A stretch of DNA of 64,000 nt from Owenia fusiformis (lineage: Eukaryota; Annelida; Polychaeta; Sabellida; Oweniidae): assembly GCA_903813345.2 (NCBI GenBank), contig CAIIXF020000001.1, positions 1,550,001-1,614,000 on the forward strand, in the 5' to 3' direction. The position numbers were made by a program, and so were the translations under genes. The notes beneath the pieces were generated by a model. That model saw only the letters and a program-made list of their open reading frames with translations, did not search any database and was not told where the DNA came from. Every line of letters starts with the position of its first letter. Positions within the stretch are counted from its first letter, which is position 1. Positions 17,547 through 64,000 of the stretch are shown here, piece by piece.

Positions 17547-20030
17547 ATGCGAATTTTTATTCGTAATAAGTCCAGGTATAGCCCCGAGTTCCAGGAAGAT
17601 GACATGATGTACATTGACGTGCAGGACTATGCCGGAACTACAATAAATGAGCTGAAAGAGGTAAATTGATTAATTTTGGTGGGTGATAATAGGCTACAGT
17701 GCTCAGTTAGACTATATCCTATTTAGTCTGAATTATATTCAGACTATAAGGCACCTATGTTAAAGTTTGGTAATTCTAAATATTTGTTTACATAGGAAGT
17801 GCTATTCAAAATGGCCGATTGGGTAAAATTAATTTGCACATTTGTTACTTCAATTAGCTTTATTTCCACTTGACAATATGCTGTGTAGTCCAACAACATT
17901 AGACCTAGCCCGGGCCTCGTTTCTTATCTGACATGTGTTATGGCCCGGCTAGGTCTAACCTCCATGACCATTTTGCCTTTGATGCGTTAATTTAATCGTT
18001 CAGCAGGTTTCGACATGCGGAACTAATTGAACCCTGAAAACATGGCAATATTACACAAAGAATGTGATTCAAGCATGCATACATACCTTATAAACACATA
18101 CACCCCGTCCCGTATCCCCCTTAGACCCTATTGATGCATAATTACGAAAATATTGGAGACAGGTTTGGAATATGACGAAAATGTCGGTCAGTTTCGGTAA
18201 CATCGAAATTGCAAATCGTTTCAGGAATTAACCGTCATCAAGGCACTGCATTAACGAACAGTTGGTTTGCAATTAATAACTATTTTGCGTGTATATACGC
18301 GCTATATAAATTAATCAAAGATACCTGTTATCCTCAAAATTGATCTTTTTATCCCGAGTAATCACGATAATAATTATCAATCTATTTGACAACAATTTCG
18401 TTTCGCTGGTAGTTTAATTTTACGATCCGGGACACTCAGACGAACAGACACAATGACGGACATGCGGGAATGTCACTTTAGAGATTGGTAAGTGTAGCCT
18501 CATTTTACTCGTATAAATGAACATTTAACACAATAATATTGTGTTAAATCGCTTGATATTATGTGTTTTTATATTATTGTCAAGTATCAGTTGCACGTTA
18601 TCGCGGAAAAATGGTTTCGATGGATTCAGAACTTGCATCAAAGGAAAGAATAGTAAGGAGGTTAAACTCAATAATGGCCCCAAGAAAATTCCTAATAATA
18701 AAGAACGCCGTTATTGAGTTTAACGACGTTGAACTATATGCTGTGTTACTTTTTATTGCATTTAATTGTACCTTACTATTTAATTGAAATTTTGTAATGT
18801 TTATTTTATTGAAAAAATGGTTGCTCCAATTGATAATTTTGTGCAAAAAAATTCACTGCAATTTCCACAGGAAAGTAGTACATCATAATAGACTGACTTC
18901 TAGTCAGTCTGTTGGATACATACTAAGTGCTCAGTGGCATCTTGATTTTCTATCACCATTCCCAGATCATGGTGATTTGAGACTTCATACTTTCCAATAA
19001 TGTCTAGATACACACATCCCTTTGGTTTTGTATATTTTACATTTTGTATACTCTCAGTCTCAACTAAAGTCTAGTTTTTTATTTTGGAAACCAGTTCATA
19101 AATCCATGGGCTCTAATTGAAAGCCCATGATAAATCATGTGGTTAAAATAAGGAAATGTTGTGATGTAACCACGTATCTACTAACTTACCAGTTTGTTCT
19201 ATGTCATCTATTGGACTAAGTTGCATTGTGGAACTCGGCTAAACACCAGACTGAAGGCAGTATTCTGAGGTTATAAAATATGAATCAAGATACTTTTATG
19301 TTTTGTAGCACTGTAAAAGAAAGTCCCCAGCAAAGATTGATGAACTGTTTTACCGCAATGAGGCCCTAGCAGATGACAGGTATGTCAACCAATCCATTAA
19401 ATCTATAATGTACCCATAGAAATAAATTAGATGAAAACTAAATATTTATATAAATCCCAGCACTGTTGTTATAATACATAGAAATGTGTATTATTTTCTT
19501 GCTCTTTTTGCTCTTTGACAACAAATAGAAGACTGGATCCAAAAAAGAGTTGTCAGGAAATTTTTTCTGTCAGTCATGGACTTAGCATAATAGATGGTGA
19601 TCATCAAAGTCTCAAAATCAGTTAAAAGTTTCACAATGAATACCTCCATATTTAGTCTTCCATTGAGTCTCTTATCATCCCCCCCCTCCATGTCACCCTT
19701 ATTTGATTCACCTCCTGACCAGAGGTGGGATGTGTAGGGGGCACCCTATCTTGATGTGTGAATTCTTACATATCAACATGAAATGTTCTTATTTACTGAA
19801 TCTGTATTTTTTTATATTTTGTTTAGGTCTGTAGCACACAACAATCTGCATGACAATGTCATCCTGGAAACAACTTCTAATCCATTCTTCCTGGCCTGTA
19901 TGAATATCCTCTTAGTGAAGGCAGAAAGGAACATGTCCGACTACCCCGATAAATCCCCCGAGTATTCCCGTTTCAAAAGATCAAAGATACACAAAATAAC
20001 AATCATTGGTGTGCTTACCAATTCGAAAAA
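17547..20030 (+). CDS. Exons 1-3: ubiquitin-like domain
   Basis: Residues 1-130. The start is ATG 17547 (AGAATGCGA). The pattern follows the ubiquitin fold: strand MRIFIRN, strand MMYIDV, helix TTINELKEHC, strand DELFYRNEAL, and ADDRSVAHNNLHDNVILE, which aligns with the ubiquitin stretch EDGRTLSDYNIQKESTLHL. No C-terminal Gly-Gly follows, so this is an integral Ubl module and not a conjugated modifier. Exon 3 continues with SNPFFLACMNILLVKAERN and a basic segment (residues 81-130) that I do not recognise. Donor and acceptor sites are GAG^gtaaat, ttgtag^CAC, GACAG^gtatg, tttag^GTC and AAAAA^gtaagt. Confidence 0.8.
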
Positions 20031-23000
20031 GTAAGTTTACCTACTCTTCAATATTTAGAAATTGTGGATATTCTGAATGAAAGTACATGTTATGTTGTAC
20101 TGTACTATACTGTATTAATATACTGCACTATACTGTACTGTACTGTACTCTAATATACTCTCATGTACTGTTCTATACTGTACTCCCTATGATATCCTCA
20201 TTGTACATACGGTACTTAATTACTTTTCACCAATTCTGAAATTCTGATTGTGTCCAAAACTGGTCAAACTATCACAATTTTTATTTCTTTTTGCTCAACT
20301 ACTGTATGCAGGTTTTTTTTTAGCAGCAGTCAACAGGCGATCTTCACCAGTTGTTATCACAAAATCGCCTGTTGTTTTTAAGGTCTTTTCAACTTTTCCA
20401 TGTTAAATTATGATTTCCATTGATTTTGCCTCTTGTTTTCATTTATTTAGCCTGTTGTTAGAAATTTTAGTGAAACCCCTGTGTATGTATGAGTAATTGG
20501 GCATGTTGGTAACTTGTTTTAAAACACAACTGCTGTAGAAAGCACTGGATTATGTCATCTTCAATTAAATTTGCTATTATTGTTATTTTTAGAGAGAGTG
20601 ACAGACAGCCACCTCACATGAGCAATGTGAATGCATTCATAGCCTACATAGACAGATTAGGCAAGAAAGGTGCTTCAATGAGTTATTTCACAAGAGATGC
20701 TTTGCATGAGTTCTATGAGGAGTTTGAACAGCTTGATATGCAGAAACCAGACCCTGTTGGATCATTCCTAAGACGCCATGCTATTCAGTTGGGATTCATT
20801 GATCCAAAAGATGGAGGTTTGTTCATTATTTGTTTAACTTTCAATGCTAGTCAATGTCGTTACAATAAGAAATGGATAAAAATAAAGATTCCATGAAAAA
20901 TGCTAAAATATATTAATATAGAAATAGGTTGATAATAAGTTGATCACGGTGTTGCCCTTTGAGTTCTCTAATTAAGAATGACAAGATGCCCCAAATCACA
21001 ATATAAATTAATAAATAAGAGGCTGTTCACAAAGTTATGAAAGGGTCAGGGGTGCTATTAAATCTATGAATTGGAAAGCAAGCATGACATCACTATTTTT
21101 CTAATTTTACGAAACGTTAGTAACTTTGCAAATCTTATGAAAATGCAACTTTATGAAATTCGCAAATTATACAATGGACTTACGAATGTTTGTTACGACA
21201 AACTGTACAAAAATGGGTCTCTGATTGTAACAGGTCGTTCAATAAGTTCATGCAAAAATATTCTCTTTTTTTTTTATTTTTCAATGCTTATCCTTGAAAC
21301 TTTCACAAACCATAGAAAAATACCTACTAATTGAAAAACAAAAAATAAAATACTTTGTTTTGATTGGTCAAAAGTTATGGTTGCTAAGGTAACCCATGTT
21401 TTGGTCACGCGGGCAATTTATGACATGAAAAAAGTTTAATTTTAATTGAATTCTTGTGATTTATTAGTTGCACATTAGATACACTCTCTATAAAACATTG
21501 TCTTTTTAAATTGAAGTTCCTATCAAGCATGTCACTTCATTAATTAAATGCCTAGCTCCTGGTGCTTCACCTATTCTTCGTATTGAGCCCTAAAGTCACA
21601 AGGGATTTTAGTGCGTCACCCTAAGCGAGCTCTACAAAAGAAACGGCCTGAAATTACCCCCTTCTCCAAGCTATTTCACCAAGACAATGCCCCATGGTCA
21701 TGAGCAAAAAATATGGTTCAGGATACCATCAGAGGTACCCTACAGATGGAGATTTTAGGCCAGGCTGCATACTCCCCTGATGAGGCTGTATTGGACTTTT
21801 GGGTGTTCAATAGGATGAAAGATGAACTGAGAGGTGGTCGTATGCAAGCATGACAGAGCTCAATGCAGCTGTGCAGAGTGCAATGCGTACTAAATTCCCT
21901 TGTGGCTTTAGGGCTCAATACGAAGAATGGGTGAAGCGCCAGGAACTATATGCATCCAGTATAAAGGAGATACAGTATGATGAGAATATCTTGAGCATTT
22001 AATGAAGTGACTTGCTTGCTTGGAGAGATAGTTATTCAAAAATTAGAAAGAGTGTGTATGTACTGTTCATTTAATTTGTAGTTTTGCATTTCTAATTTTA
22101 TGATTAGATGATGTTGGAGGGGCTGTTGTACATAATGGGCCAGGCCATACTGCAGAGCTTAACCACCAGCATGATATCAATGTCATTAATCCTAACAACA
22201 GAGCTGGTAAAATTAAGAATAACAAAGCTGGTGTCACCCCTACAACTAGAAGAGTGAAAGCAATTAAGGTAAGTTTACAATTTACACTACTATTCTAGTA
22301 TTTTAAATGAACTATATAATGTGCTATCCTGGAGTTGGTTTGTGGTGGATAAAAGCACGAGACTTAAATGTTCCAGAAACACTTTCATGTTAGCTTATGT
22401 GGTAATTTCAACCATTAATGATCATCTAATTTTACATGGGTGCCATTATATACAGTTGAAACAATAGAACAAAAGATAGCAAAAACATGTCTTATCTCCA
22501 GATGTCTTTTCCAATACATGCACAGCTAGTTATGTGGACTTACATTATGATAGTATTGGTACAGCTGATAGGATTGGTACAGCTGATAGGATTGGTACAG
22601 CTGATAGGATTGGTACAGCTGATACTGTTGGTATAGCTGATAGGATTGATACAGCTGATAGGATTGATACAGCTGATACTGTTGGTACAGCTGATACTGT
22701 TGGTACAGCTGATAGGATTGGTACAGCTGATAGGATTGGTACAGCTGATACTGTTGGTATAGCTGATAGGATTGATACAGCTGATAGGATTGATACAGCT
22801 GATACTGTTGGTACAGCTGATACTGTTGGTACAGCTGATAGGATTGGTACAGCTGATAGGATTGGTACAGCTGATAGGATTGGTACAGCTTATACTGTTG
22901 GTATAGCTGATAGGATTGATACAGCTGATAGGATTGATACAGCTGATACTGTTGGTATAGCTGATAGGATTGATACAGCTGATAGGATTGATACAGCTGA

Positions 23001-50000: not shown

Positions 50001-53000
50001 TCTATTATTCTGGAAATTTTCAGGTAAGATACTTTATTATTAACAATTTGAGAGCAAAAAGTAGCGAATATATTGCTCGGCCCTTGTATAGCAGGTTTAT
50101 AAATACTTATATTTTCATCAGCGGGCAGATATAGCTAATGTCCCTGCCTGAGAGGGCAGATATATTACACCTGCCCACTAAGTCATAACCATCATTTGTG
50201 TATGATTAGCAATGAGGGAAGTAGCATACTTAATACGTTAATAATCAATGATTCGAGAATATGTGGATGAATACTTAAAAAACAGGAGAATCCTCCTAAG
50301 GCCAAGAAAACAAAATTAGTCATGAATACATTTATGTGGTTGTATTCTTTCTAACTCTGGCCAATTTAACAATGTGAACCAGATAAGAAAGATTGATATG
50401 GGATAAACAGATAATCCTATAGTCAGTTCATGCTATTAGGATTATCCCTTGGCGAATATAATATATTTTCCCCCAGGACCTAAGGCCTTTGGCCAATAGA
50501 AAATATCTTCCCTCGGGACCTACGACCCTCGGCCAGATATATTATATTGGCCTCGGGATAATTCTAATACGCTGAACCTCATAGAGGATAATCTCTATTC
50601 GTCTTCATCAATTATTATTATACATATAAATCGGGATATAAATATAACCTAAAGTAAGAAATCACATTCTCTAACCAGTAATATTTAATTTTAAAATTGG
50701 TAAATGATGATTATGTCACAATAGAATTGATGACCATGATTTATTTGAGAATAAAACAGACAAAACAAAGGCTAACAAAAATCGTAAATATTTAAATATT
50801 TTAAAATTGCTTGTTTTTCATCATTATTACTTTGATCTCCAAACCCCAAAATTTGAGTGTTACAAATTGTTTCAAGTTAAAGTATGCCTAATTTCATGAG
50901 CAAACTAGTAATCTTGTTGGATATTTTTCCTCGACAATGCCTTATCTAATTCATCGATATACAAACTACTGGATTCAAAATGCTATTTTACAGGATGGGT
51001 GTTCATGAAAGTAACACTAAACATCAATTTTGTCATAAACTGAACAATGCAGCTTATTGATTCTCCCATCTAAGCAACAGAGCCTCTTTTAATATATTGT
51101 AATTTCAAAATTGCCTCTAATGAAGTTCTTCAATCAAATCTAAAATGGACACAACTGGTAATATCTTTATACCATATGAGTAGAATGTTTGTTTCTTTCA
51201 AATTCATGCTTTCGTTAGAAACATGGATATCACTAATTCATAGTTTTGATTTATACTTCAAATGGTGTGCATTATATATGAGGTTTAATTAATGGGAAGT
51301 TTTTAATACAGGGAAATACAATATATCTGAGGGAAATACAATATACCTCCCCGAGGGGTTGAGGGTAGAATATTGTATTTCCCAAGGGTTATACCTTGTA
51401 ACCAAAATTATTTATCATATACGAAAATATGAGAAATTGCACAGAATGAAATTCCTGCAGGGGATTACTGAGCGGGTGATAAACCTGGCGATACATAGAG
51501 ATTATCCTATATGAGGTTCAGGATATTGGAACTATCCCGATTCAAATATAATATATCTGCCCAAGGGCGATTATGACGGAGTGGGCAGATATACTATATC
51601 TGCCCGCTCGCAACAGAATGTAAAGCTATATCTGCCCGCTGATGAAAATATAAGTTTTTACAAACCTATTTTATGTACCTGAAACACGACCAAGTATGGG
51701 ATAAAGCGGGATATGCAGTACATGTATATCCCCACTCACCTAAGGTATCAATTATATTCATGCATTTTATTTACCTATAACACTAAGTATAGGATAAATA
51801 ACTTTTACTGACAAATTGTATAAGTGCATGATTACATGAGTCACAACTACTCACTAAAAGGTTAACTTATTGCATGAAGAAATGTAATTCTTCATGAAGA
51901 TTTCATCACTTATTTGACTGAATTTTGAATTTTTAATGATGTAAAGCAAAATTATTTCTACTTGCATCTAAATCTATTTCATTGTATAAGTCAACAATTA
52001 ATAAGGCATATACATATCACTGGCTTCCTTGATTCATTTAGATTCCTTGCACTTTTAAAATCATCAATAATTCATATAGGGTTGAACTATCGAATAATGA
52101 AAACATTGCAAATGATGTGATCGAAATTTTTATACTATTTAGCTTGGAAATGTTGCTGATATAGTTTTAATGTGATTTTAGGAGATTAAATGTTCTACTG
52201 AGGAACTTTGATTATGTTCAATTTTCTATGATCTTTAACTTTCTGAAAAAGGTCACACTAAATTCTCATTGAGACGATGTTAAAAATCTTAATGTTGACT
52301 TCCTAAATGTTGAATTCTTTTGATCGTCATGAATTTAAGGTTCACACAAAATCTGAAGATCATATAGTTTCAAACACAATCTGAATCTCATTAAGTTTGG
52401 TGCGAAAGCAGTTTTACTTTAATCCAAAATAACAAATATGGTAAATCAATATGTGTCTATGGTAGATGCTAGCGTGTAGTCCAACCAGCATAAGTGCTGC
52501 CATCTACCTATCCATTCATCAGTTTAGCACCTAATAAGGTCAGTACTCATGGTAAAGCTTTTGTACCTTGTCTATGGTAAAAATAAATCAAACAGAAATG
52601 TTAACTTTACACGATTGGTAATGCCCACCTTGAAGGGTGTAGGGATAAAGGGAAGGGTCAGGATAACACTTATATAAAATATTTAAAGTGTCTAATAATG
52701 ATAATGAACATATTACAATGTTACACAACATAAGTAGATGCTAATTAAATGTCAATTGTTGTTAGTATAATATGTATTTTTCATTTAATGCTGCAACAAG
52801 TACACGCGTACCAAAAAGTGCCACGCCCTCTTTTCCCTAAAAGCAGCTATGTGTGACTATATTTGATAAATATTATTGATTTATAGGATCATTATGAACA
52901 CTTTTCAGTGTTTAAATGTTAAAATATACATATTGATACAATTTTTGACAAAGTAGCAGCCATAAAATCCAAACAGATTTGCAAATATTTCACTTTGAGA

Positions 53001-56000
53001 ACAAAGGGACACATTTGGGAGGGGGTCAAATTGAGAATATTTCGAGATATAAATACTGTTTCTATGGTAACCATATAAGTTAGAGATTGGAAATTTTTGG
53101 CACTTACTAACCATAACATGCCCTACCCAATATAAAACAATGAATATCTGGCATGCATTAGTATTCTTTTTATTGGCTGGTATTAAAGTACCCCCATGGT
53201 TTTTTGGGGGTAGGGGTATAAATTGGTCCGAGGGCCGTCTGCCACCCCTATAGAAAGTCCAACTACCCAGAAAGTGTCTAGTATCATCATACAGATGGTT
53301 TGAAATAGGTTGGAATGTGTAACCTTTCATGTAAGGAAGGAGTTACAATTATCAGAGTGGGGCGTAGTCGACTGTAAGCCATTCTGTAGAAATGCTCTAG
53401 AAATGCAACCTTCCTTACATGAAAGGTTACACATTCCAACCTATTTCAAACCATCTGTATGATTATACTGGACACTTTCTGGGTAGTTGGACTTTCTATA
53501 GGGGTGGCAGACGGCCCTCAGACCAATTAATACCCCTACCCCCAAAAAACCATGGGGGTACTTTAATACCACCCAATAAAAAGAATACTAATGCATGTCA
53601 GATATTCATTGTTTTATATTGGGTAGGGCATGTTATGGTTAATAAGTGCCAGAAATTTCCAATCTCTAACTTATATGGTTACCATAGAAACAGTATTTAT
53701 ATCTCGAAATATTCTCAATTTGACCCCCTCCCAAATGTGTCCCTTTGTACTCTAAGTGAAATATTTGCAAATCTGTTTGGATTTTATGGCTGCTACTTTG
53801 TCAAAATGTGTAATATTATATCTATATTAACATTAAAACACTTAAAAGTTGATATAATGATCCTATAAATCAATAATATTTATCAAATATAGTCACACAT
53901 AGCTGCTTTAGGGAAAAGTGGGCGTGGCACTTTTTGGTACTTGTGCGCTTGTTGCAGCATTAAATGAAAAATGCAGATTACACTAACAATAATTGACATT
54001 TAATTAGCATCTACTAATGTTGTGTAACATTGTAATATGTTCATTATCATTATTAGACACTTTAAATATTTTATACATGTGTTATCCTGACCCTTCCCTA
54101 TCATAGGTCATCAATGGTCAAATGAACTTTTAGTTTAAGTCTTATAGGGTCCTCGGTCTTTTAAGCCTGTCAAGAGTCAAGTCTTACTTATTCATTGACT
54201 TGTTCCTAGAATATGAATGGATACGTTCAAGTCATCTAGAGCTATTCAAGTCATCTATGCTTGTTCAACAATGTTCAATATTTAGAACCATTTTACCATG
54301 TTTACTGCAATTGAAAAGTAATAAACAGTTCAATCCTTTTGGTATGATATTTGATGCTAGTGTGAATTGCATAACATTTATGATTAAACTTAAATGAACT
54401 AATTTAACTCTGGCTATTAACCCTTCCCTAGTATCCTTCACATAACCTCTAAATCATCTTCATATCCATGGCCTAAATGGGGAAGGAGGGAGGGGTTACA
54501 AATAGTGACCGAGGATAATTTGAATCAAAGCAAGAAGACGTAATACTCAAAACTAGAAAGATTGGAGACCATTTATACCCTTCCTAACATTTTGCCTAAT
54601 ACATAACACTAAAATCTATTTTGACACTTCTTTTATCAATACCTCAACATCAGTCAATGCATGATCTATCCAATGGATTAAAGATTATACTTGATTCTAA
54701 TATGGCAAAATTTATTTTTCGTATGAATTGCATAGAGCATCATTTTGCAGTTATAATAAAATGCATCCATTCATTCATTGGCTCATAGTTAACAAAAAAG
54801 CTATTCTCTGGAAGGTACAGTATAATTTCTATTAGTATTTAGCAAAATAATTGCAAGATAAACAATTTACACATGTTTCTGATATGCTGTATTTTCAATG
54901 ATTCCTAGATCCTTCAATAGTGGTTCGGTATATGTTTTTGAAATACTTCATATAATTCCTAAACAAATCTGTTTAGTGTATGCAATCAAAAAAAGTAGAT
55001 ACATTTGTCCCATACTTGGATATGTTTCAGATACATACAAGGGCCGAGCAATATATTCGCTACTTTTTGCTTTATTTTCTTTTATATTTGTTTATTTCCA
55101 TTGAAATTTGGTACAGACATAGAGTGTAGATTTCCGCATCTTTTGATTCCATTTTCAAGCCCATTGCCAAATATGGCAAAAAATTATGGTTGTCATAGCA
55201 ACGGAAGGTATGAGCTTCCAGAGCTGCCCATAATTTTACTGCAATTGCACATGCAACAATATCTTTATATGCCCATTTCTCATAACAAAAACATTCAGTT
55301 TGGGTAATTTTTATAAACATTGTTTACTGGACATTGATCCAATATTCAGAACAATGGTTGTGATGTCATAGATGTTCTTTTCAAATAATAAAGAGGTCAC
55401 AATTGATCCGCATATGCATCACAAAAGGGAGACTCTGCTTCCTGAGTTGCAGGTCTTGCGAAAGAACTTCATGGATGCAGTTCGTAAAAAGCGCCCAGTA
55501 TTGATCAACCATATGATATATCATCAAGATAATGCTCCATCACACAGGGCCCGTGAGGTAACTGATATATTAGCAGCTCTAAACATTGAGAAATTTGATC
55601 ATGCACCATACAGTCCAGACCTTGCATTGTGCGACTTTGAAATTTTCGGCAAACTGAAGAATGAGCTACGTGGGCAGAGGTTTGGTGACCGTGAAGAAGT
55701 GGTTGAGGCCGTCCATAAGGCCCTAAAAGACCTATATGGAAATGGAAACGGACTGCAACAGGCCTATCAAGACTGGCTTTCCCGATGTAGAAAATGCATA
55801 GCTGCAGATGGACACTATTTTGAGAATGAGGCATGGAATGAGGAGTAACTGTCTTAATTAACAAAAAGGACATTTTGTATAAAAGTTGTTTTCTGAAACA
55901 TTGTCACAAATGTCAGCTCCGGTGGTCACTATCAACCAATATTCAATGCCATGTAAAATATTACGGATGTAACCAAATAAATGCACATTTGGGGATATTA

Positions 56001-59000
56001 CAGAAAAATGTTTTTTCTATTATTCTGGAAATTTTCAGGTAAGATACTTTATTATTAACAATTTGAGAGCAAAAAGTAGCGAATATATTGCTCGGCCCTT
56101 GTATAGCAGGTTTATAAATACTTATATTTTCATCAGCGGGCAGATATAGCTAATGTCCCTGCCTGAGAGGGCAGATATATTACACCTGCCCACTAAGTCA
56201 TAACCATCATTTGTGTATGATTAGCAATGAGGGAAGTAGCATACTTAATACGTTAATAATCAATGATTCGAGAATATGTGGATGAATACTTAAAAAACAG
56301 GAGAATCCTCCTAAGGCCAAGAAAACAAAATTAGTCATGAATACATTTATGTGGTTGTATTCTTTCTAACTCTGGCCAATTTAACAATGTGAACCAGATA
56401 AGAAAGATTGATATGGGATAAACAGATAATCCTATAGTCAGTTCATGCTATTAGGATTATCCCTTGGCGAATATAATATATTTTCCCCCAGGACCTAAGG
56501 CCTTTGGCCAATAGAAAATATCTTCCCTCGGGACCTACGACCCTCGGCCAGATATATTATATTGGCCTCGGGATAATTCTAATACGCTGAACCTCATAGA
56601 GGATAATCTCTATTCGTCTTCATCAATTATTATTATACATATAAATCGGGATATAAATATAACCTAAAGTAAGAAATCACATTCTCTAACCAGTAATATT
56701 TAATTTTAAAATTGGTAAATGATGATTATGTCACAATAGAATTGATGACCATGATTTATTTGAGAATAAAACAGACAAAACAAAGGCTAACAAAAATCGT
56801 AAATATTTAAATATTTTAAAATTGCTTGTTTTTCATCATTATTACTTTGATCTCCAAACCCCAAAATTTGAGTGTTACAAATTGTTTCAAGTTAAAGTAT
56901 GCCTAATTTCATGAGCAAACTAGTAATCTTGTTGGATATTTTTCCTCGACAATGCCTTATCTAATTCATCGATATACAAACTACTGGATTCAAAATGCTA
57001 TTTTACAGGATGGGTGTTCATGAAAGTAACACTAAACATCAATTTTGTCATAAACTGAACAATGCAGCTTATTGATTCTCCCATCTAAGCAACAGAGCCT
57101 CTTTTAATATATTGTAATTTCAAAATTGCCTCTAATGAAGTTCTTCAATCAAATCTAAAATGGACACAACTGGTAATATCTTTATACCATATGAGTAGAA
57201 TGTTTGTTTCTTTCAAATTCATGCTTTCGTTAGAAACATGGATATCACTAATTCATAGTTTTGATTTATACTTCAAATGGTGTGCATTATATATGAGGTT
57301 TAATTAATGGGAAGTTTTTAATACAGGGAAATACAATATATCTGAGGGAAATACAATATACCTCCCCGAGGGGTTGAGGGTAGAATATTGTATTTCCCAA
57401 GGGTTATACCTTGTAACCAAAATTATTTATCATATACGAAAATATGAGAAATTGCACAGAATGAAATTCCTGCAGGGGATTACTGAGCGGGTGATAAACC
57501 TGGCGATACATAGAGATTATCCTATATGAGGTTCAGGATATTGGAACTATCCCGATTCAAATATAATATATCTGCCCAAGGGCGATTATGACGGAGTGGG
57601 CAGATATACTATATCTGCCCGCTCGCAACAGAATGTAAAGCTATATCTGCCCGCTGATGAAAATATAAGTTTTTACAAACCTATTTTATGTACCTGAAAC
57701 ACGACCAAGTATGGGATAAAGCGGGATATGCAGTACATGTATATCCCCACTCACCTAAGGTATCAATTATATTCATGCATTTTATTTACCTATAACACTA
57801 AGTATAGGATAAATAACTTTTACTGACAAATTGTATAAGTGCATGATTACATGAGTCACAACTACTCACTAAAAGGTTAACTTATTGCATGAAGAAATGT
57901 AATTCTTCATGAAGATTTCATCACTTATTTGACTGAATTTTGAATTTTTAATGATGTAAAGCAAAATTATTTCTACTTGCATCTAAATCTATTTCATTGT
58001 ATAAGTCAACAATTAATAAGGCATATACATATCACTGGCTTCCTTGATTCATTTAGATTCCTTGCACTTTTAAAATCATCAATAATTCATATAGGGTTGA
58101 ACTATCGAATAATGAAAACATTGCAAATGATGTGATCGAAATTTTTATACTATTTAGCTTGGAAATGTTGCTGATATAGTTTTAATGTGATTTTAGGAGA
58201 TTAAATGTTCTACTGAGGAACTTTGATTATGTTCAATTTTCTATGATCTTTAACTTTCTGAAAAAGGTCACACTAAATTCTCATTGAGACGATGTTAAAA
58301 ATCTTAATGTTGACTTCCTAAATGTTGAATTCTTTTGATCGTCATGAATTTAAGGTTCACACAAAATCTGAAGATCATATAGTTTCAAACACAATCTGAA
58401 TCTCATTAAGTTTGGTGCGAAAGCAGTTTTACTTTAATCCAAAATAACAAATATGGTAAATCAATATGTGTCTATGGTAGATGCTAGCGTGTAGTCCAAC
58501 CAGCATAAGTGCTGCCATCTACCTATCCATTCATCAGTTTAGCACCTAATAAGGTCAGTACTCATGGTAAAGCTTTTGTACCTTGTCTATGGTAAAAATA
58601 AATCAAACAGAAATGTTAACTTTACACGATTGGTAATGCCCACCTTGAAGGGTGTAGGGATAAAGGGAAGGGTCAGGATAACACTTATATAAAATATTTA
58701 AAGTGTCTAATAATGATAATGAACATATTACAATGTTACACAACATAAGTAGATGCTAATTAAATGTCAATTGTTGTTAGTATAATATGTATTTTTCATT
58801 TAATGCTGCAACAAGTACACGCGTACCAAAAAGTGCCACGCCCTCTTTTCCCTAAAAGCAGCTATGTGTGACTATATTTGATAAATATTATTGATTTATA
58901 GGATCATTATGAACACTTTTCAGTGTTTAAATGTTAAAATATACATATTGATACAATTTTTGACAAAGTAGCAGCCATAAAATCCAAACAGATTTGCAAA

Positions 59001-62000
59001 TATTTCACTTTGAGAACAAAGGGACACATTTGGGAGGGGGTCAAATTGAGAATATTTCGAGATATAAATACTGTTTCTATGGTAACCATATAAGTTAGAG
59101 ATTGGAAATTTTTGGCACTTACTAACCATAACATGCCCTACCCAATATAAAACAATGAATATCTGGCATGCATTAGTATTCTTTTTATTGGCTGGTATTA
59201 AAGTACCCCCATGGTTTTTTGGGGGTAGGGGTATAAATTGGTCCGAGGGCCGTCTGCCACCCCTATAGAAAGTCCAACTACCCAGAAAGTGTCTAGTATC
59301 ATCATACAGATGGTTTGAAATAGGTTGGAATGTGTAACCTTTCATGTAAGGAAGGAGTTACAATTATCAGAGTGGGGCGTAGTCTAATGAAATTCCTATG
59401 ACAATTTGGCTAGTGAACGACCATTTTGCATATGGTGGCAATTTGTGTGTGTTATTCTACGATTTTTGCTATAACTGAAAAAGTAGTAAATGGCAACCAT
59501 GGTTGTTCAATGGGATATGCTACACTTTGACATTGCTATTATCTAGTTCTAGTGTGTGCTTTCAGGTATATTAGAAGCGCCCAAAGTGCACAAGCCATAC
59601 TCCCCAAAGGCATACAGGACCCCATTTGCATTATTGATTGGCTTACATAGGTATGAATTATCATAAGCTTTTAACAGAGCTAGCTAGTTGAAATTTGAAA
59701 GATATTTACTATAAAAGAGACTAAATTACTAAATTACTTATAGTTATAATTGTAAGTTATGAATATATGTGAAATGATTTTTTGCAACAAATCATGATTA
59801 CTTGTATGATTCTGAAAATGTCTTGCATAGTAGAAAGTAATATTGAGGAAATACGAAATTAAGTGGGTCTAGCCAGTCTATGAGGCAAGCAGGGCAACTG
59901 ACTCACCAAAATTTTAAAATATATCAGGCAAGAAATGTGGAATGAATCCAATGTTATATATTCTTTAGCCCTAATTTGCCTCATTTTTTATTTTGCTTCA
60001 TCTGTTCATTTTTGCCTCATTTTTTATTTTGCTTCATCTGTTCATTTTTGCCTCATTTTTTATTTTGCTTCATTTGTTCATTTTTGCCTCACTTTTTATT
60101 TTTGCCTCGTCTAATTTAAGATCCTGGCTATGCCCTTTTGATTTTCAATAATTCAAAGTTCTCAATATTGCATTATGAAATATCATTATATTACATTAAT
60201 ATTGTAGGACTAAGAGTAGATACTTGTATCTATGGTAATACTTTCATGGTGATTTTTCTTTTTGCCATAATAATAATTTAAGAACAGCAATACATAATTA
60301 GTATTTTAGATTTATTACATGCCTCAGTCTTGTATTCATGTTTGCTTTAATGATCTCCATAATGAAGTGCTTAATAACAGGAAACTAATGTTTACAGGAA
60401 GTTAATTTACATGATATATTTTTTTGAATCTCATAATCTCATTTTTAATTAATATTTCTTTAAATGATAATCTATCCTTGTCATGTTTTGAATATTCTTT
60501 TTATATAGTAACCTTATCTTTTTCAGTGGTCTCCATTCTGACCCTCCTATGCTTAGTATGAATGAGCGAAATGTGAAGGATCTCTCCCAACCTCACACAG
60601 ACACTGACCTTGACAGCAAAAATCCAGGTAAATTTCTTGGGTGACAATTAGAAATTATTTGTACATTTTTTCAACTGTGAGTTTACTAGCTTATGCAAGG
60701 ATAAGTGTCAAAAGAGAAAACAAAAAGCAGGAATCAAAACAGACAAGAGAACAACCTGACATCAGTGAATCAAGACCATAATATCCCAAACTATAATCTT
60801 AACCACAATGACACATATAATATTTCAATAGGATAAAGATATACATTGTTCCATGGTCATACTTACTGTGATATTGCGTTTGATATCTTGTCAAAACAAA
60901 TATTTTGTAATCAGTTGAAAAATATGTTACAGTGTCATATCTGATTTTTAACAGATTTTTGTTGCTTAACCAGGCTGACACTAACAATGGCTGTTAAAAT
61001 AGTCATTTGGAAAGCTTATTTACCTATTTTAAAGTCATCATATCCATTCATGAAGAATATCTTCAAATGGTAACTTCTATCAAATAATTACATTTAAGGC
61101 AAGTTTTTTGGTGGATTTGACAGTATGGAGAATACTCTGATAATGAAGAATCTTGTGCTAAAGGAAGCTGCCATCAACCCAAGGTATGACTGCACTTAGC
61201 TTAAAAGTACAATATTAAGATTAGTACTGCACTAAGATTAATAACATTTCACGAAGATGAATAGCACTACACTAAGATTAATAGCACTACACAAAGGTTA
61301 ATACCACTACACTAAGATTAATAGCCCTACACTAAGATAAGATAACTAAATCTAGTGCTGCACAAAAATACTGCTCTAAGTTTTAAGTACTGCACTAAGA
61401 TTAATAGAAACGTGTTAAAATAAATGGCACTGCACTCAAATTATTAGTACATGTTCTGCACTTAGATTAATAGTATGTACTGCACTAAGATGAACAGCAC
61501 AGTAAAATAATGGCACATTTATAACACTTAGGTCAATAGTAAGATTAATGTCACTGTGCTAAAAATAGTTCTTTACTTGTTTATTTAAGTACATTATAAA
61601 TTGTTTAAGTGTCATTGTTGTTTTCTTTAACTTAATTATTCAGTGTTTGTGATATTAAATAAAAAAGACAAATAAAAAAAGATTCATTTCATGTTTTGAA
61701 TCAATTACTGTCATCAATAGAAGTGATCTATATACAATTGAAAGCTAGTTAAGTATTAACATGTGCTTTGACAATTGAAAAACATTTATTTCATAAATGT
61801 TTCATTATTGTTAATGACTGCCACTAATCATTTCCTGTCAAATGGACCATGATATAGGAAATGATGGACTATTTAATGAATTGTAGGTATATAGGTCACT
61901 CAAATCTTTAAAGGAGTATTATACCTAAAAAAATTGCCCTGATGTTAAAGCTTATTTATTTTGTATTTTAACAACATATTAAAATGTGTGAAATTTCAGA

Positions 62001-63009
62001 AGTGCAGTTACTACATATTTCATTAAGGAAATGTTCTGAACCTTTTGTTCGCATTTTGTGAATTTTCCATATTATCAAAGGCAATTGGAATATAAAGTGC
62101 AGAATGGTGGGCAGATTTAAAATATGAAAATTGAATGATTCAAATATCCGGGTGAAAGTTTTATAACAAGAAACCTTCCAGGTAGTTTCAACCATATGTA
62201 TCACTAAGTATATAGATTGTTCAGCATTGATTTCTATATACTATAGTGTTAATATGACTCTATGTTTCAGCTATGCCTTGACTGTCTCTGGAAGACACTT
62301 GGCTGAGAAATGTTCAGACTTTGCCCAAGCTTATTACAACTTCAGTTCTGTAAGAGGAATACCTAAAATACCAGAAGCATCAAGGTAAGTACATACATGT
62401 ATTTTATATTCTTGTATTCTAGTCATGATTACTGTGTGTATTATAGTTACCAACTAACACTACCTGCAGTAGGAAGTTAAGAATAGTATCCTATCCTATC
62501 TTAGGAAATAAATCATACAAATGTAGGGCTACACCATGCCCAATAACAGAAAATAGGCAATTGGCTGTACAATGCATGAAAGAATTGTTATATATGCAGG
62601 TTTACATTCCCTCATACTAGGGCTCATAGGGAGATGTTGTTTGAATCTCATAATGATAGCTATCCATTGTGTCGCATGTAGGCATTAATTCAAGTGCATT
62701 ATACTATAGTATATATGTAAATGAAAATAACATAACAACTTGTATGCCTTAAGATCTGTGTTGTATGTGTCTTGCTTTAATGCACCTACCTATGTTTATG
62801 GTTGGCTATATTTTAGTACTCAGATAGGTGCAGAAAGGCTGTGTTTGGTGATAGATTCACAAGAGAAAGAGAGGGAGAGGCTGATAGGGTTTGCTAGACA
62901 GAGGGGAATTGTCACAAAAGTGCGAGAGCTACCTGCTGGCGACTATGTGTGGCTTCTGCTGCCCCCTGGTGCTGATGGGAGCCAGGATATACCTAGTAAT
63001 AGAGAAATG
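17547..63009 (+). CDS. MUS81-like structure-specific endonuclease with N-terminal Ubl and B-box (3' part outside window)
   Basis: Eleven exons are read from GT/AG sites: 17547-17660, 19309-19379, 19827-20030, 20593-20816, 22108-22268, 46060-46201, 59566-59650, 60527-60627, 61099-61183, 62271-62384, 62817-63009. Phases match at every junction, and the 1,494 nt encode 498 residues with no stop. Domains: ubiquitin-like (1-80), unassigned helical part (81-258), B-box (259-305), MUS81-type winged helix (about 310-412), start of the ERCC4 nuclease (441-498). MUS81 with EME1 cuts branched DNA at stalled forks and recombination intermediates in the nucleus. Retained residues are the D447 and E450 pair (VIDSQE) and D476 in AGDYVW; the ERK and later acidic residues must lie beyond the window. 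The link across the 23.8-kb intron 5 rests on phase 0/0 plus the absence of a stop on one side and of a start on the other. It could instead be two genes. Confidence 0.8.
17898..17962. repeat. Hairpin in intron 1
   Basis: TTAGACCTAGCCCGGGCC pairs imperfectly with GGCCCGGCTAGGTCTAA across a loop of about 30 bp. Intronic, no coding content. Confidence 0.5.
18661..18722. repeat. Hairpin in intron 1
   Basis: TTAAACTCAATAATGGC pairs with GCCGTTATTGAGTTTAA, with a 28-bp loop. Intronic. The overlapping short ORFs on both strands arise from this palindrome. Confidence 0.5.
20093..20195. repeat. Imperfect TACTG/TATAC simple repeat
   Basis: Words TGTACTG, TATACTG and TACTCTAATATACTC recur every 5-10 bp in intron 3 of the MUS81-like gene. 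Low-complexity microsatellite. Confidence 0.6.
20326..20376. repeat. Small hairpin in intron 3
   Basis: CAACAGGCGAT and ATCGCCTGTTG form an 11-bp perfect stem with a loop of about 20 bp. Confidence 0.5.
20593..22268 (+). CDS. Exons 4-5: unassigned linker region of the MUS81-like gene
   Basis: Residues 131-258. Exon 4 (20593-20816) is probably helical (SNVNAFIAYIDRLGKKG, DALHEFYEEFEQL, VGSFLRRHAIQLGFI); I do not recognise a named domain. Its donor, GGAG^gtttgt, is weak but is required by the frame. Exon 5 (22108-22268) is polar and basic (NRAGKIKNNKAG, TPTTRRVKAIK) and ends AAG^gtaagt in phase 0; it may be a flexible linker or nuclear-localisation-type segment. A decayed mariner lies in the intron between the two exons. 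Confidence 0.7.
21545..21985 (+). mobile_element. Decayed mariner (DD34D) fragment with inverted duplication of its 3' end
   Basis: Across frames at 21615-21880 mariner transposase words can be read: KKRPEITPF, LFHQDNAPWS (second catalytic Asp region), YSPDEAVLDFWVFNRMKDELRGGR (third Asp). Stops and frameshifts interrupt it. About 60 bp of the 3' coding end (right arm 21890-21951) reappears inverted at 21551-21612, giving a snap-back structure. N-terminal half missing. It sits in intron 4 of the MUS81-like gene. Confidence 0.7.
22549..23526 (+). repeat. 18-bp minisatellite, about 54 copies
   Basis: The unit is ATTGGTACAGCTGATAGG, alternating with variants carrying CTGTTG in place of GGATTG, GATACAG in place of GGTACAG, and GGTATAG. 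Variants follow a higher-order order that repeats over several units. Because 18 is a multiple of 3, frames stay open on both strands (332 codons forward reading IGTADR/TVGTAD, and others); these are by-products, not genes. Nearly every unit holds CAGCTG (an E-box palindrome) overlapping GATA. It lies in intron 5 of the MUS81-like gene, about 280 bp after exon 5. Confidence 0.95.
23804..25152. mobile_element. 1.35-kb non-autonomous element, CAC...GTG ends, 5-bp target duplication
   Basis: The left end CACGGGGGATAAGCAAAACG and its reverse complement at the right end continue for about 50 bp (through GCCACGGACTGCGACTCGCG). AGAAC flanks both sides (23799-23803 and 25153-25157). The interior has no transposase. 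Same end type and duplication length as the elements at 1306, 32877 and 63028, though the interior sequence is unrelated. Confidence 0.85.
25770..26045. repeat. Dispersed non-coding repeat, copy 1
   Basis: Shares its order of words (CTAGTGAG-type start, GTGTTATTTTATGATTTTTG, AGTAGTGAATGGCAG, CATGGCTGTTCAATGGGAT, CATTGCCATTATTTAGTT) with copies at 35890-36046 and 59394-59551. This copy also contains an earlier degenerate half-copy (25770-25860). No coding capacity or clear TIRs. Confidence 0.6.
26348..26770. mobile_element. 423-bp MITE with 9-bp target duplication (Mutator-like)
   Basis: The ends CGAACTCC...GCAGTG and the reverse complement (CACTGC...GGAGTTCG) are imperfect TIRs. An inner stem joins CACTGCGGCGGGCAG and CTGCCCGCCGCAGTG. 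CCACTAACT lies just outside both ends (26339-26347 and 26771-26779), a 9-bp target duplication, which is the length typical of Mutator-like elements. No transposase. Confidence 0.75.
26780..29736. other. Intron 5 interior, no gene recognised
   Basis: Nothing codes convincingly. The short ORFs at 27.1-27.6 kb and 27.7-27.9 kb have no domain. A TGACGTCA (CRE-type) octamer occurs near 28060 and an ACAGAGGGCGCTAT word near 28333; either could be a regulatory site by chance. Confidence 0.4.
29737..30062 (+). repeat. Two-copy tandem duplication, 159-bp unit
   Basis: AAAGATCAGCCAGTAAAAAC... begins at 29737 and again at 29896. The copies match closely through TTGACTGTACAATAAAGTTGACT, the second with an extra GGGCTATT segment of about 12 bp. 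Non-coding, within intron 5. Confidence 0.8.
30063..31110. other. Intron 5 interior upstream of the first vWA gene
   Basis: No gene. TTAATTAA-rich low-complexity sequence at 30690-30780. A near-palindromic pair of words, AAAGATGGCGAAGATG and ATCTTTTAAACC, lies around 30430-30500. Confidence 0.4.
31149..31159 (+). other. Candidate non-coding first exon or 11-nt microexon of vWA gene A
   Basis: ATGGCAGGGAG is preceded by a pyrimidine tract plus AG and followed by a GTAAAT donor. The same arrangement, with the flanking intron conserved, precedes gene B at 41320-41330. The ATG-containing exon then starts at 31805 after ATAG. It could be a microexon, or the 3' end of a short first exon driven by the AT-rich box just upstream. 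An ATG falls within it in gene A but not in gene B, so it is unlikely to be the true start. Confidence 0.4.
31520..31696 (+). pseudogene. RNase H fragment from a LINE
   Basis: One frame reads W-stop-PGHLCIVGNELADKYA, then a stop, then TAAAEAINIV. This is the C-terminal RNase H signature (WxPGHxxIxGNExADxxA) found in RNase H-bearing LINEs such as the I/R1/LOA group. Only about 60 codons remain, with internal stops. It lies inside the intron between the leader exon and the first coding exon of vWA gene A and is absent from gene B, so it arrived after the gene duplication or was lost from B. Confidence 0.65.
31811..39096 (+). CDS. Secreted protein with two vWA-like domains, paralogue A
   Basis: Five coding exons: 31811-32144, 33805-34431, 35304-35786, 36387-36557, 39062-39096, in frame for 549 residues. 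Residues 1-21 (MRLAVTFAILTLLIGVPGSDA) are a signal peptide. The N-terminal part (22-111) is basic and unassigned. Exon 2 (112-320) is a vWA-like domain with a degenerate metal site: VQISCRC where DxSxS is expected, but VTFTDG retained. Exon 3 (321-481) is a second vWA with a complete DRSNS site and VGTDG. Exon 4 holds NxT/NxS glycosylation sites (NRT, NCT). The last exon ends GAVCLLPEN. Many cysteines and no membrane helix suggest an extracellular protein binding ligands through vWA metal sites. Gene B is a tandem paralogue; both lie inside intron 5 of the MUS81-like gene on the same strand. Transposons have enlarged its introns. Function unknown. Confidence 0.85.
32340..32700. repeat. Degenerate 130-140 bp tandem repeat with AAGGTCA motifs
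   Basis: CTTGCTTCAAATTGACC (or a close variant) recurs at about 32358, 32482 and 32628, each followed by TTTTTCAAAATCATCTACAAG and then TGACCTTCAATGACCTTCTC plus AAGGTCA. It lies in intron 1 of vWA gene A. Gene B's equivalent intron lacks it. Confidence 0.65.
32877..33728. mobile_element. 852-bp foldback element, CAC...GTG ends, 5-bp target duplication
   Basis: CACCCTATGCAGACAGAG at 32877 is matched in reverse complement at the right end, and the arms pair along almost the whole length (about 400 bp each) around a centre near 33300. AACTG flanks both ends (32872-32876 and 33729-33733). No transposase; the ORF on its minus strand comes from the palindrome. It is inserted in intron 1 of vWA gene A just before exon 2 and is absent from gene B. 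Confidence 0.85.
34788..34862. repeat. Hairpin in intron 2 of vWA gene A
   Basis: TATCAGGGAAGAT and its complement ATCTTCCCTGATA flank a loop of about 45 bp. Non-coding. Confidence 0.5.
35049..35131. repeat. Strong hairpin in intron 2 of vWA gene A
   Basis: CCACCTGGAGAATATCCTGT...ACATGTTC pairs with GAACATGTCAGTGGACAGG...CCCAGGGGG over about 33 bp, with a loop of about 15 bp. No equivalent in gene B, so it is probably a recent palindromic insertion. Confidence 0.65.
35890..36046. repeat. Dispersed non-coding repeat, copy 2
   Basis: Same family as 25770-26045 and 59394-59551. It lies in intron 3 of vWA gene A. Directly after it, CCAGTGTACAATCACAAG matches gene B at about 43812, so the repeat inserted into the ancestral intron of A. 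Confidence 0.6.
36121..36295. mobile_element. 175-bp MITE with CAGTGATCTCCCCAG ends
   Basis: CAGTGATCTCCCCAG at 36121 is mirrored by CTGGGGAGATCACTG ending at 36295. GTGCT flanks both ends (36116-36120 and 36296-36300). A second inner pair, CACCCACCTGA, occurs directly repeated. CAGTG-type ends are common in hAT MITEs, but hAT duplications are 8 bp and only 5 bp match here. Intron 3 of vWA gene A. Confidence 0.7.
36654..37760. mobile_element. 1.1-kb foldback element with about 400-bp arms
   Basis: ATAGTACCCCGGACAGG at 36654 is matched by its reverse complement ending at 37760. The arms extend to about 37058 and from about 37361, leaving a loop of about 300 bp. No target duplication recognised and no transposase. 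It sits in intron 4 of vWA gene A, where gene B has only about 216 bp of intron. Confidence 0.8.
37765..39060. other. Rest of intron 4 of vWA gene A
   Basis: No coding sequence seen. The last 150 bp (around 38900-39060) is recognisably homologous to the short intron 4 of gene B (CTGAGAAAATGGATTAAATCC versus a similar stretch at 44268), so the remaining sequence was inserted. Confidence 0.5.
39280..39528. repeat. Inverted repeat with C-tract/TCCATCC arrays
   Basis: GGATGGAGGGGGGGAG at 39280 is matched in reverse by CTCCCCCC...TCCATCC from 39471, where C8-C13 tracts alternate with TCCATCCA three times. A related tract recurs at 39873-39896. On the minus strand these are G-runs spaced by short loops, a G-quadruplex-compatible pattern. 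Lies between vWA genes A and B. Confidence 0.65.
39900..41280. other. Region between the two vWA genes
   Basis: No gene seen. AT-rich, with TATATAATTAATATAATTA near 41000. It should carry upstream control sequence of gene B, but nothing specific stands out before the TATA-like box at 41283. Confidence 0.4.
41283..41290 (+). promoter_or_regulatory. TATA-like box upstream of vWA gene B
   Basis: TATATAAA lies about 30-37 bp before the conserved leader segment at 41320-41330, the spacing expected of a TATA box to a start site there. Gene A has a weaker ATTAATAAATA at the corresponding place. If this is the promoter, the leader exon is very short (about 15 nt). Confidence 0.4.
41320..41330 (+). 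other. Candidate non-coding first exon or microexon of vWA gene B
   Basis: ATAGCAGGGAG is followed by a consensus GTAAGT donor and preceded by TTATTAG. It is the counterpart of 31149-31159 in gene A. The coding exon starts after TTTTAG at 41453, six bases before ATG 41459. Confidence 0.4.
41459..44390 (+). CDS. Secreted protein with two vWA-like domains, paralogue B
   Basis: Exons 41459-41777, 42198-42824, 43243-43725, 43969-44139, 44356-44390: 544 residues in frame, with splice phases and exon lengths identical to gene A except exon 1. The start is ATG 41459, the counterpart of gene A's. Signal peptide MKLAVTFAVLALLIGVPGSDA. The first vWA-like domain again has VQISCRC at the metal site and VTFTDG. 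The second has DRSNS and VGTDG. Exons 2 and 4 are almost identical to gene A, while exons 1 and 3 differ strongly. Introns are compact, so B resembles the ancestral state. AATAAA follows at 44505-44510. Expected to be extracellular; the binding partner is unknown. Confidence 0.85.
44505..44510 (+). terminator. Polyadenylation signal of vWA gene B
   Basis: AATAAA lies 115 bases after the stop, in sequence conserved with gene A, where the matching word is ACATAAA (about 39209). Gene A may therefore use a weaker signal. Confidence 0.55.
44520..45469. other. Intron 5 interior downstream of the vWA genes
   Basis: AT-rich, no coding region or clear repeat recognised. Confidence 0.4.
45470..45794 (+). 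mobile_element. tRNA-derived SINE
   Basis: The head is tRNA-like: TAGCTCAGAGG at 45481-45491 fits an RNA polymerase III A box and GGATTCAATCC at 45523-45533 fits a B box, at tRNA-like spacing. A tRNA-unrelated body of about 240 bp and an AATAC-type short repeat tail (AAAATACAATACAAT) follow. It does not fold as a complete tRNA gene. It lies about 265 bp upstream of the B-box exon. No clear target duplication was found. Confidence 0.7.
46060..46201 (+). CDS. Exon 6: B-box-type zinc finger of the MUS81-like gene
   Basis: Acceptor TTTTTAG^GAT, donor AAAG^gtacat; phase 0 in, phase 1 out; 47 codons. The spacing is CxxC (DRPCEDCG), then CxxC (YCPDCEGG), CxxC (LCQDCS), then H-x(6)-H-H: a zinc-binding B-box. 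B-boxes act in protein interaction and assembly, typically in TRIM ubiquitin ligases. None of the MUS81 proteins I know carries one. Placed between a Ubl and the MUS81 winged helix. Confidence 0.85.
46460..47345. mobile_element. Near-perfect palindrome (foldback), arms about 420 bp
   Basis: CCAAAGGACCACGAGTTG at about 46486 is mirrored by CAACTCACGGTCCTTTTG at about 47299-47315. Pairing runs inward through CTTCAGAGGGCTGGGAATCA, and inside that CAAGCAGATTTTGAGATAAC, to a centre near 46900. Outer limits decay gradually. No coding content. Intron 6 of the MUS81-like gene, immediately before the 6-kb tandem duplication. Confidence 0.85.
49023..50086 (+). mobile_element. Mariner (DD34D), internally deleted, copy 1
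   Basis: The 34-bp TIRs are identical in the two ends (CAAGGGCCGAGCAATATATT... and its complement) and are flanked by the TA duplication at 49021-49022 and 50087-50088. Perfect TIRs suggest recent movement, though only part of the transposase remains, so it must have been mobilised in trans. Confidence 0.9.
49357..49833 (+). pseudogene. Mariner transposase, C-terminal part, copy 1
   Basis: 158 codons cover the second half of the catalytic domain: HQDNAPSHRA with the second Asp, and YSPDLALCDFEIFGKLK with the third Asp 34 residues later (DD34D). The DNA-binding half and the first Asp are missing; the sequence before about residue 20 does not match the family. Not a working transposase. Confidence 0.85.
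50140..51620. repeat. Stem-rich GGGCAGATAT/CCTCGGG interior of the nested foldback
   Basis: GGGCAGATATA and its complement occur several times at both ends of the nested foldback (50123, 50155, 51564, 51589, 51615). Paired words such as GGATTATCCC, CCCTCGGGACC, GGCCTCGGGATAA, ACCTCATAGAGGATAAT and CCTATATGAGGTTC lie within it. The set suggests several older palindromic insertions. Confidence 0.5.
55038..56101 (+). mobile_element. Mariner (DD34D), internally deleted, copy 2
   Basis: Identical to the copy at 49023-50086, including TA flanks. Copied by the tandem duplication, not by transposition. Confidence 0.9.
55372..55848 (+). pseudogene. Mariner transposase, C-terminal part, copy 2
   Basis: Residue-for-residue the same 158-codon frame as at 49357-49833, with HQDNAPSHRA and the DD34D third Asp. 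Incomplete. Confidence 0.85.
59394..59551. repeat. Dispersed non-coding repeat, copy 3
   Basis: Same family as the copies at 25770 and 35890 (ACAATTTGGCTAGTGAACGA ... CATTGCTATTATCTAGTT). It starts within 10 bp of the tandem-duplication end and finishes about 14 bp before the acceptor of exon 7, so it may supply the branch point or pyrimidine tract of that exon. Confidence 0.6.
59566..62384 (+). CDS. Exons 7-10: MUS81-type winged-helix region
   Basis: Residues 306-433 from exons 59566-59650, 60527-60627, 61099-61183 and 62271-62384, phases 1/2/1/2/2 all compatible. The order of words follows the MUS81 winged helix: HKPYSPKAYRTPFALLIGL (MUS81: YxPxxxSGAxxILLxLY), MENTLIMKNLVLK (MUS81: LRSLLHRNLVL), and SYALTVSGRHLAEKC (MUS81: RYSLTPEGLELAQKL). 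This domain contacts DNA and influences cleavage in MUS81. The segment between (LSMNERNVKDLSQPHTDTD) is the variable part. Confidence 0.8.
59977..60112 (+). repeat. 36-bp tandem repeat, about 3.5 copies
   Basis: TGCCTCATTTTTTATTTTGC plus TTCATCTGTTCATTTT repeats with few changes in intron 7 of the MUS81-like gene. Confidence 0.8.
61198..61520 (+). repeat. Degenerate minisatellite of about 20 bp (CACTAAGATTAATAG)
   Basis: CTGCACTAAGATTAATAG and variants (CTACACTAAGATTAATAG, CTGCACTTAGATTAATAG) recur at 18-30 bp spacing through intron 9, decaying to the right. Confidence 0.7.
62817..63009 (+). CDS. Exon 11: first half of the MUS81-like ERCC4 nuclease
   Basis: 64 codons after acceptor ATTTTAG^T, ending ATG^gtaggc in phase 0. 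The sequence aligns with the start of the MUS81 nuclease: ERLCLVIDSQE against LCVDIGE, RQRGIVTKVRELPAGDYVWL against RLHVTHTVRKLHVGDFVWV. D447, E450 and D476 are present where MUS81 has metal-binding residues. The ERKx3D half and any helix-hairpin-helix domains must lie to the right of the window. It is closer to MUS81 than to XPF or EME1, in which the catalytic set differs. Confidence 0.85.
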
Positions 63010-63027
63010 GTAGGCACCTACTTGTAT

Positions 63028-63887: not shown

Positions 63888-63892
63888 TGTAT

Positions 63893-64000
63893 GGAAGACA
63901 TTGTTGAGCTTATCTGTCTGGTTCCATAAATCCACCATCCCTTTATTTACAATGTCAGTTCATTGAAATATTGATCCCTAGGATAAACATTGAAGTCGTG
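63893..64000. other. Intron 11 sequence to window edge
   Basis: No exon recognised. The next MUS81-like exon (expected to encode the ERK motif) is not visible before 64000. Confidence 0.5.

What the first reader, a model, noticed from the sequence alone, without database searches (positions are those of the whole stretch)
17547..63009. A MUS81-like nuclease fused to a ubiquitin-like domain and a B-box
Eleven phase-compatible exons join a Ubl fold (MRIFIRN..., ADDRSVAHNNLHDNVIL), an unassigned helical part, a B-box zinc finger, and a MUS81 winged helix plus nuclease start. Family knowledge: MUS81 normally begins with a helix-hairpin-helix domain and has neither Ubl nor B-box. If real, a structure-specific nuclease carries built-in ubiquitin-pathway modules, which could target it to proteasome, segregase or ubiquitin-marked damage sites, or serve nucleic-acid defence. 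I do not recognise this architecture as described.
Basis: partly seen in the sequence, partly recalled or inferred. Interest (0 to 1): 0.88.

Follow-up and report, generated by a model that had tools for sequence, protein, structure and literature searches.

The report
MUS81-like nuclease with ubiquitin-like, B-box parts
An animal genome window carries eleven exons that read as one gene joining a ubiquitin-like domain and a B-box zinc finger to the start of a MUS81-type DNA-cutting enzyme, an unusual combination, but two complete unrelated genes sit between its two halves, so transcript proof is needed.

Summary
The exon chain is as described: 11 exons, 17547-63009, 10 of 10 junctions GT/AG and in phase, 498 codons open. 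Domain matches are weak singly but in order: Ubl (15.9 bits, below cut-off, only when searched alone), B-box (27.1, at cut-off), ERCC4 start (19.8; human MUS81 cut alike 24.8). Exons 7-11 match human MUS81 (BLASTP 3e-4). Against a split: the B-box exon cannot be a first exon, the 1.67 kb before it has no start exon with a phase-0 donor of 4 bits or more, exon 5 ends in a perfect donor, and GC3 agrees. But a strong-donor candidate start exon lies between the vWA genes (41253-41330). One gene remains more likely than not (0.55). Proposed mechanism: a MUS81-type nuclease whose Ubl acts in cis as Esc2's SUMO-like domains act in trans. Catalytic ERK motif and C-terminal HhH lie off-window; no animal genomes were available to seek orthologues.

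The parts
17547..17660 (+). exon 1: ATG, first part of ubiquitin-like domain
   Evidence: PF00240 15.9 bits over residues 29-76 of the N-terminal 79 aa
19309..19379 (+). exon 2: ubiquitin-like domain, middle
19827..20030 (+). exon 3: end of ubiquitin-like domain, then unassigned segment
20593..20816 (+). exon 4: unassigned helical domain (three helices in a low-confidence model)
   Evidence: pLDDT 64; no Foldseek match with E<=0.001; no Pfam family
22108..22268 (+). exon 5: low-complexity linker, ends AAG|gtaagt, phase 0
46060..46201 (+). exon 6: B-box zinc finger (Cx2C-x10-Cx2C-x6-Cx2C-x4-H-x6-HH), phase 0 in; in-frame stop at the acceptor and no Met, so it cannot start the gene
59566..59650 (+). 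exon 7: start of MUS81-like winged helix region
   Evidence: not within the aligned part, placed by eye
60527..60627 (+). exon 8: winged helix region
   Evidence: placed by position between exons 7 and 9
61099..61183 (+). exon 9: MUS81-like winged helix (KNLVLKE)
62271..62384 (+). exon 10: end of winged helix (YALTVSGRHLAEK)
62817..63009 (+). exon 11: ERCC4/MUS81 nuclease start with VIDSQE and GDYVW; rest lies right of the window
31811..39096 (+). context: complete two-vWA gene A (5 exons, 549 aa) inside 'intron 5'
41459..44390 (+). context: complete two-vWA gene B (5 exons, 544 aa), tandem copy of A, inside 'intron 5'
   Evidence: dN 0.061, dS 0.171
47355..59384 (.). context: two identical head-to-tail 6015-bp units, each with a long-inverted-repeat element, filling most of intron 6

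Best explanation
One gene of an animal (lineage not determined) whose 17547-63009 part codes for Ubl, helical domain, low-complexity linker, B-box, MUS81-type winged helix and nuclease start; its fifth intron hosts a tandem pair of vWA genes. The product would be a MUS81-type catalytic subunit, probably paired with an EME1-like partner, that cuts 3' flaps or branched DNA. In place of the N-terminal helix-hairpin-helix of MUS81 it has a Ubl, a helical domain and a B-box. The Ubl would act in cis as the SUMO-like domains of yeast Esc2 act in trans on Mus81-Mms4: stimulating the nuclease and coupling it to SUMO/ubiquitin-dependent recruitment and turnover; the B-box would be a protein-docking or self-assembly module. 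Shown: exons, phases, domain matches, the GD of the nuclease motif. Inferred: one transcript, activity, partner, roles of Ubl and B-box.
For: Exon chain and phases. Domain matches in order; BLASTP 3e-4 and 0 of 500 shuffles for exons 7-11 against human MUS81, while the controls (N-terminal half, B-box) are reached by 65 and 81 of 500 shuffles. Exon 5 ends AAG|gtaagt; reading through it gives a stop after 9 codons, with no AATAAA until 26053. Exon 6 cannot be a first exon, and in 44391-46055 there is no ATG exon with a phase-0 donor of 4 bits or more. GC3 0.434 and 0.421 for the halves against 0.32 for vWA gene A and 0.371 for the TLR gene. Similar flanks of the vWA copies (31141-31243/41312-41416 and 39132-39257/44430-44556) suggest that one ancestral vWA gene, later duplicated, stood there. 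[quoted passage not shown]
Against: Two complete same-strand genes lie within the 23.8-kb intron 5. Same-strand nesting is uncommon: of 158 human protein-coding nested genes 53 were tandem and 31 of those were judged truly nested (PMC3192792, passages). The 5/6 phase match has a 1 in 3 chance. The lack of a start exon in 44391-46055 is itself found by chance in 2 of 12 comparison stretches at 4 bits, and one weak candidate (2.6 bits) appears at 2.5 bits; between the vWA genes three candidates reach 4 bits, one with a very strong donor (41253-41330, 26 codons, 12.4 bits), which would split the gene with only vWA gene B nested. Ubl, ERCC4 and winged-helix scores are below Pfam cut-offs. PDB searches gave no MUS81 hit. 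13 AATAAA sites lie in 22269-31810, so a 3' end there is not excluded. No orthologue or transcript is available.
Confidence: 0.55

Rival explanations
1. Two genes: a Ubl-helical protein gene (exons 1-5 plus an unseen 3' exon) and a separate B-box-MUS81-like gene (an unseen 5' exon plus exons 6-11), with one or both vWA genes lying between them as neighbours.
For: Two complete same-strand vWA genes lie between; vWA gene B has an AATAAA 115 bp after its stop; the phase match is 1 in 3 by chance; a candidate start exon with a 12.4-bit phase-0 donor lies at 41253-41330, and extra small exons would escape that scan.
Against: No start exon with a phase-0 donor of 4 bits or more in 44391-46055; candidate terminal exons after exon 5 (one search lists those of 25 codons or more) show no Pfam domain, and codon scoring is too weak to judge them; perfect donor on exon 5; similar GC3 of the halves. 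The 41253-41330 candidate has no domain or homology support and still needs vWA gene B to be nested.
Confidence: 0.36
2. The N-terminal half or the whole chain is a decayed or misassembled locus, so no such protein is made.
For: A perfect 6015-bp tandem duplication in intron 6 could be an assembly error; domain scores are low.
Against: 498 codons without a stop and 10 of 10 intact junctions; 11 of 11 exons score best in the predicted frame.
Confidence: 0.06
3. On the nature of the nuclease half (not exclusive of the above): it is this species' only, canonical MUS81, with a changed N-terminus, rather than a diverged paralogue.
For: The nuclease start scores near human MUS81 cut at the same place, 19.8 vs 24.8 bits; VRELPAGDYVW aligns with VRKLHVGDFVW.
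Against: Winged helix 14.4 bits against 153.3 for human, whose score may profit from being close to the model's own sequences; 0 PDB hits at E<=1 for exons 7-11.
Confidence: 0.15

Closest known systems
MUS81 (animal structure-specific endonuclease subunit)
   Same: winged-helix match followed by ERCC4 nuclease start with D..E and GD(Y/F)VW
   Different: no HhH family listed for the N-terminal pieces; Ubl, helical domain and B-box instead; winged helix strongly diverged
Esc2 / Rad60 (SUMO-like-domain proteins acting with Mus81)
   Same: a ubiquitin-fold domain working with MUS81 (proposed role only)
   Different: there a separate protein with SUMO-like domains; here a ubiquitin-type Ubl proposed to be in the same chain
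TRIM / B-box proteins
   Same: one B-box with eight candidate ligands
   Different: no RING found; followed by nuclease parts
UHRF1
   Same: N-terminal Ubl (recalled); needed to recruit MUS81-EME1 to damage (PMC6316474 passage)
   Different: no PHD, SRA or RING listed; separate protein

Membership tests
MUS81 | ERCC4 nuclease N-terminal part with conserved acidic residues and GD | tested here: met
   19.8 bits, below cut-off 24, but human MUS81 cut alike scores 24.8; BLASTP 3e-4; 0 of 500 shuffles for exon 11; VIDSQE and GDYVW present. Against: no MUS81 hit in PDB
MUS81 | MUS81-like winged helix before the nuclease | tested here: inconclusive
   14.4 bits vs cut-off 27, model positions 49-85 of 86 only; human 153.3; 0 of 500 shuffles, z 4.1
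MUS81 | N-terminal helix-hairpin-helix domain (feature recalled) | tested here: not met
   no HhH family listed at E<=10 for the N-terminal pieces (HMMER filters drop most matches above 0.1)
MUS81 | catalytic ERK...D of the ERCC4 motif and C-terminal HhH2 (features recalled) | not testable with these tools
   would lie right of base 64000
Ubiquitin-like domain | ubiquitin-fold sequence profile | tested here: inconclusive
   PF00240 15.9 bits, E 0.011, cut-off 25.4, only when the N-terminus is searched alone; designed ubiquitin 9m9g E 0.78
B-box | B-box profile and eight Zn ligands | tested here: met
   PF22586 27.1 vs 27, PF00643 23.9 vs 24.1; ligands. PDB search of the exon: 11 rows, best E 0.16 (a ZZ finger), TRIM2 0.19, XNF7 0.44
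TRIM | RING before the B-box | tested here: not met
   no RING in the 498 aa nor in the + strand stretches 17550-22540, 23570-31801, 36601-41402, 44298-47359
Esc2/Rad60 | SUMO-like domain family | tested here: not met
   only PF00240 listed at E<=10 for the N-terminus

The most novel reading that the evidence does not exclude
A MUS81-type nuclease with a built-in Ubl and B-box, i.e. the nuclease and its SUMO/ubiquitin-pathway regulator fused in one chain, in a gene that also hosts a pair of vWA genes in an intron.
Probability: 0.5. Interest if true: 0.75.

Novelty: new variant of a known kind. Interest (0 to 1): 0.57.

Why it matters
In yeast a separate SUMO-like-domain protein, Esc2, stimulates Mus81-Mms4 and takes part in its turnover (passages). 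A natural fusion of a ubiquitin-fold domain to a MUS81-type nuclease would make that link testable in a single protein, and would show a MUS81 relative whose N-terminal docking domain was replaced.

Tried and rejected
No own genome is held. Scans of viral contigs and of bacterial/archaeal genomes found no relative; these are not animal collections, so this says nothing about orthologues. PDB searches: no MUS81 hit for exons 7-11 (0 rows at E<=1) or exon 11 (1 row, an adenylate kinase at E 0.49); Ubl only at E 0.78. Exon 4: low-confidence three-helix model, 4 Foldseek matches, all with E above 4; my guess of a winged helix-turn-helix stays a guess. B-box exon model poor, pLDDT 58, not searched further.

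Pfam scans for missed exons, all frames of a strand: 23570-31801 and 36601-41402 and 44298-47359 on both strands, 17550-22540 and 59359-63999 on the + strand. They listed the B-box with related zinc-finger families, ERCC4, and DUF6318 at E 0.43. They did not show the Ubl or the winged helix, so split domains can be missed. Not scanned whole: 22541-23569, 31802-36600, 41403-44297, 47360-59358. Codon scoring is too weak to find short exons. A bacterial promoter scan was uninformative.

Literature: (all four terms) 0 papers; with fewer terms: I saw listings of 15 of 30, 12 of 87, 5 of 5 and 12 of 30 papers and recognised none on this architecture; 10 of 146 listed, none of the ten holding MUS81; 8 of 8: 6 of 28 listed. 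Passages only were seen of PMC3192792, PMC3503706, PMC6316474 and PMC7665200.

Full report
What was checked. Eleven exons between 17547 and 63009 join with GT/AG at 10 of 10 junctions and consistent phases into 498 codons without a stop. The start codon at 17547 follows an in-frame stop. The chain leaves the window with a donor at 63009, so the gene continues.

Domains. The first three exons give a ubiquitin-like domain: PF00240 at 15.9 bits, E 0.011, when the first 79 residues are searched alone; it is not listed for the whole 498 residues, and the score is below Pfam's cut-off of 25.4. Against the PDB the only row is a designed ubiquitin at E 0.78. Exon 4 is helical in a low-confidence model and matches nothing convincing. 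Exon 6 is a B-box: PF22586 27.1 bits at a cut-off of 27, PF00643 23.9 at 24.1, better than the ZZ families at 16.2-17.5, with candidate ligands C262, C265, C276, C279, C286, C289, H294, H301/302. The aligned part is exons 9-11; exons 7-8 fit the winged helix by eye only. PDB searches with the window sequence found no MUS81. Human MUS81 cut at the same place scores 24.8 bits for ERCC4 against 19.8 here, so much of the weakness there is truncation; the winged helix, 14.4 against 153.3, is strongly diverged. The GD that opens the nuclease motif is present; that it belongs to a GD-ERK-D motif is recalled knowledge, and the ERK part would be off-window.

Inside 'intron 5' (22269-46059) lie two complete genes on the same strand: vWA gene A 31811-39096 (549 aa) and vWA gene B 41459-44390 (544 aa). 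Each has five exons, a hydrophobic start that looks like a signal peptide (by eye), two vWA matches, the second strong (57.8 and 58.0 bits) and the first just below cut-off (21.6 and 21.2 vs 23.8), and a stop. They are 88% identical in protein over 544 codons with dN 0.061 and dS 0.171, so selection has acted on at least one and probably both. Both flanks of the two copies are alike, so one ancestral gene stood there and was duplicated.

One gene or two. For two genes: the intervening genes; same-strand nesting is uncommon (PMC3192792, passages); the 5/6 phase match has a 1 in 3 chance; and between the vWA genes there is a 26-codon ATG exon candidate, 41253-41330, with a 12.4-bit phase-0 donor, without domain support, which would split the gene with vWA gene B still nested. 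For one gene: exon 5 ends in a perfect donor; its read-through stops after nine codons and the next AATAAA is at 26053; exon 6 has an in-frame stop at its acceptor and no methionine, so it needs an upstream coding exon ending in phase 0, which exon 5 offers; the 1.67 kb between vWA gene B and exon 6 has no ATG exon with a phase-0 donor of at least 4 bits, where 12 comparison stretches, some overlapping, average 1.5 by chance and 2 of 12 have none. At 2.5 bits there is one candidate; 2 of 19 real donors score 4.0 or less in the leave-one-out test, and extra small exons are not excluded. GC3 is 0.434 and 0.421 in the two halves against 0.32 in vWA gene A. I weigh this at 0.55 for one gene.

Mechanism. 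[quoted passage not shown] A Ubl fused to a MUS81-type nuclease would put such a regulator in cis. The B-box is taken as a docking or assembly module by analogy with TRIM proteins. None of these steps was tested.

Verdict. The architecture is unusual and I recognised no paper on it in the listings, but those listings were partly capped, only open-licence texts were searched, and no animal genome collection was at hand. It is a variant of a known nuclease family, not a new kind.

Noticed in passing
window 12983-15634 +: Open single-exon Toll-like receptor frame: LRR_8 73.5 bits and TIR 30.6 bits.
   Followed up: partly
window 31811-39096 and 41459-44390 +: Tandem two-vWA genes, 5 exons each, dN/dS about 0.36.
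   Followed up: yes
window 47355-59384: Two identical 6015-bp head-to-tail units, each with an element bearing about 700-bp inverted ends (94-95% complementary) and a mariner-like transposase piece (DDE_3 23.4 bits, below cut-off 28.6); a recent duplication or an assembly error.
   Followed up: partly
window 22548-23525: 54-copy 18-bp minisatellite that is open in several frames on both strands.
   Followed up: no
window about 21570-22001 +: Decayed mariner-like transposase remnant in intron 4, recognised by eye.
   Followed up: no
window 63080-63857; 32877-33728; 36654-37760; 46488-47313: Long inverted repeats (fold-back elements), 90-98% complementary.
   Followed up: no
window 4632-6185 - and 9358-11003 +: Reverse-transcriptase-like frames of LINE type, recognised by eye.
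   Followed up: no
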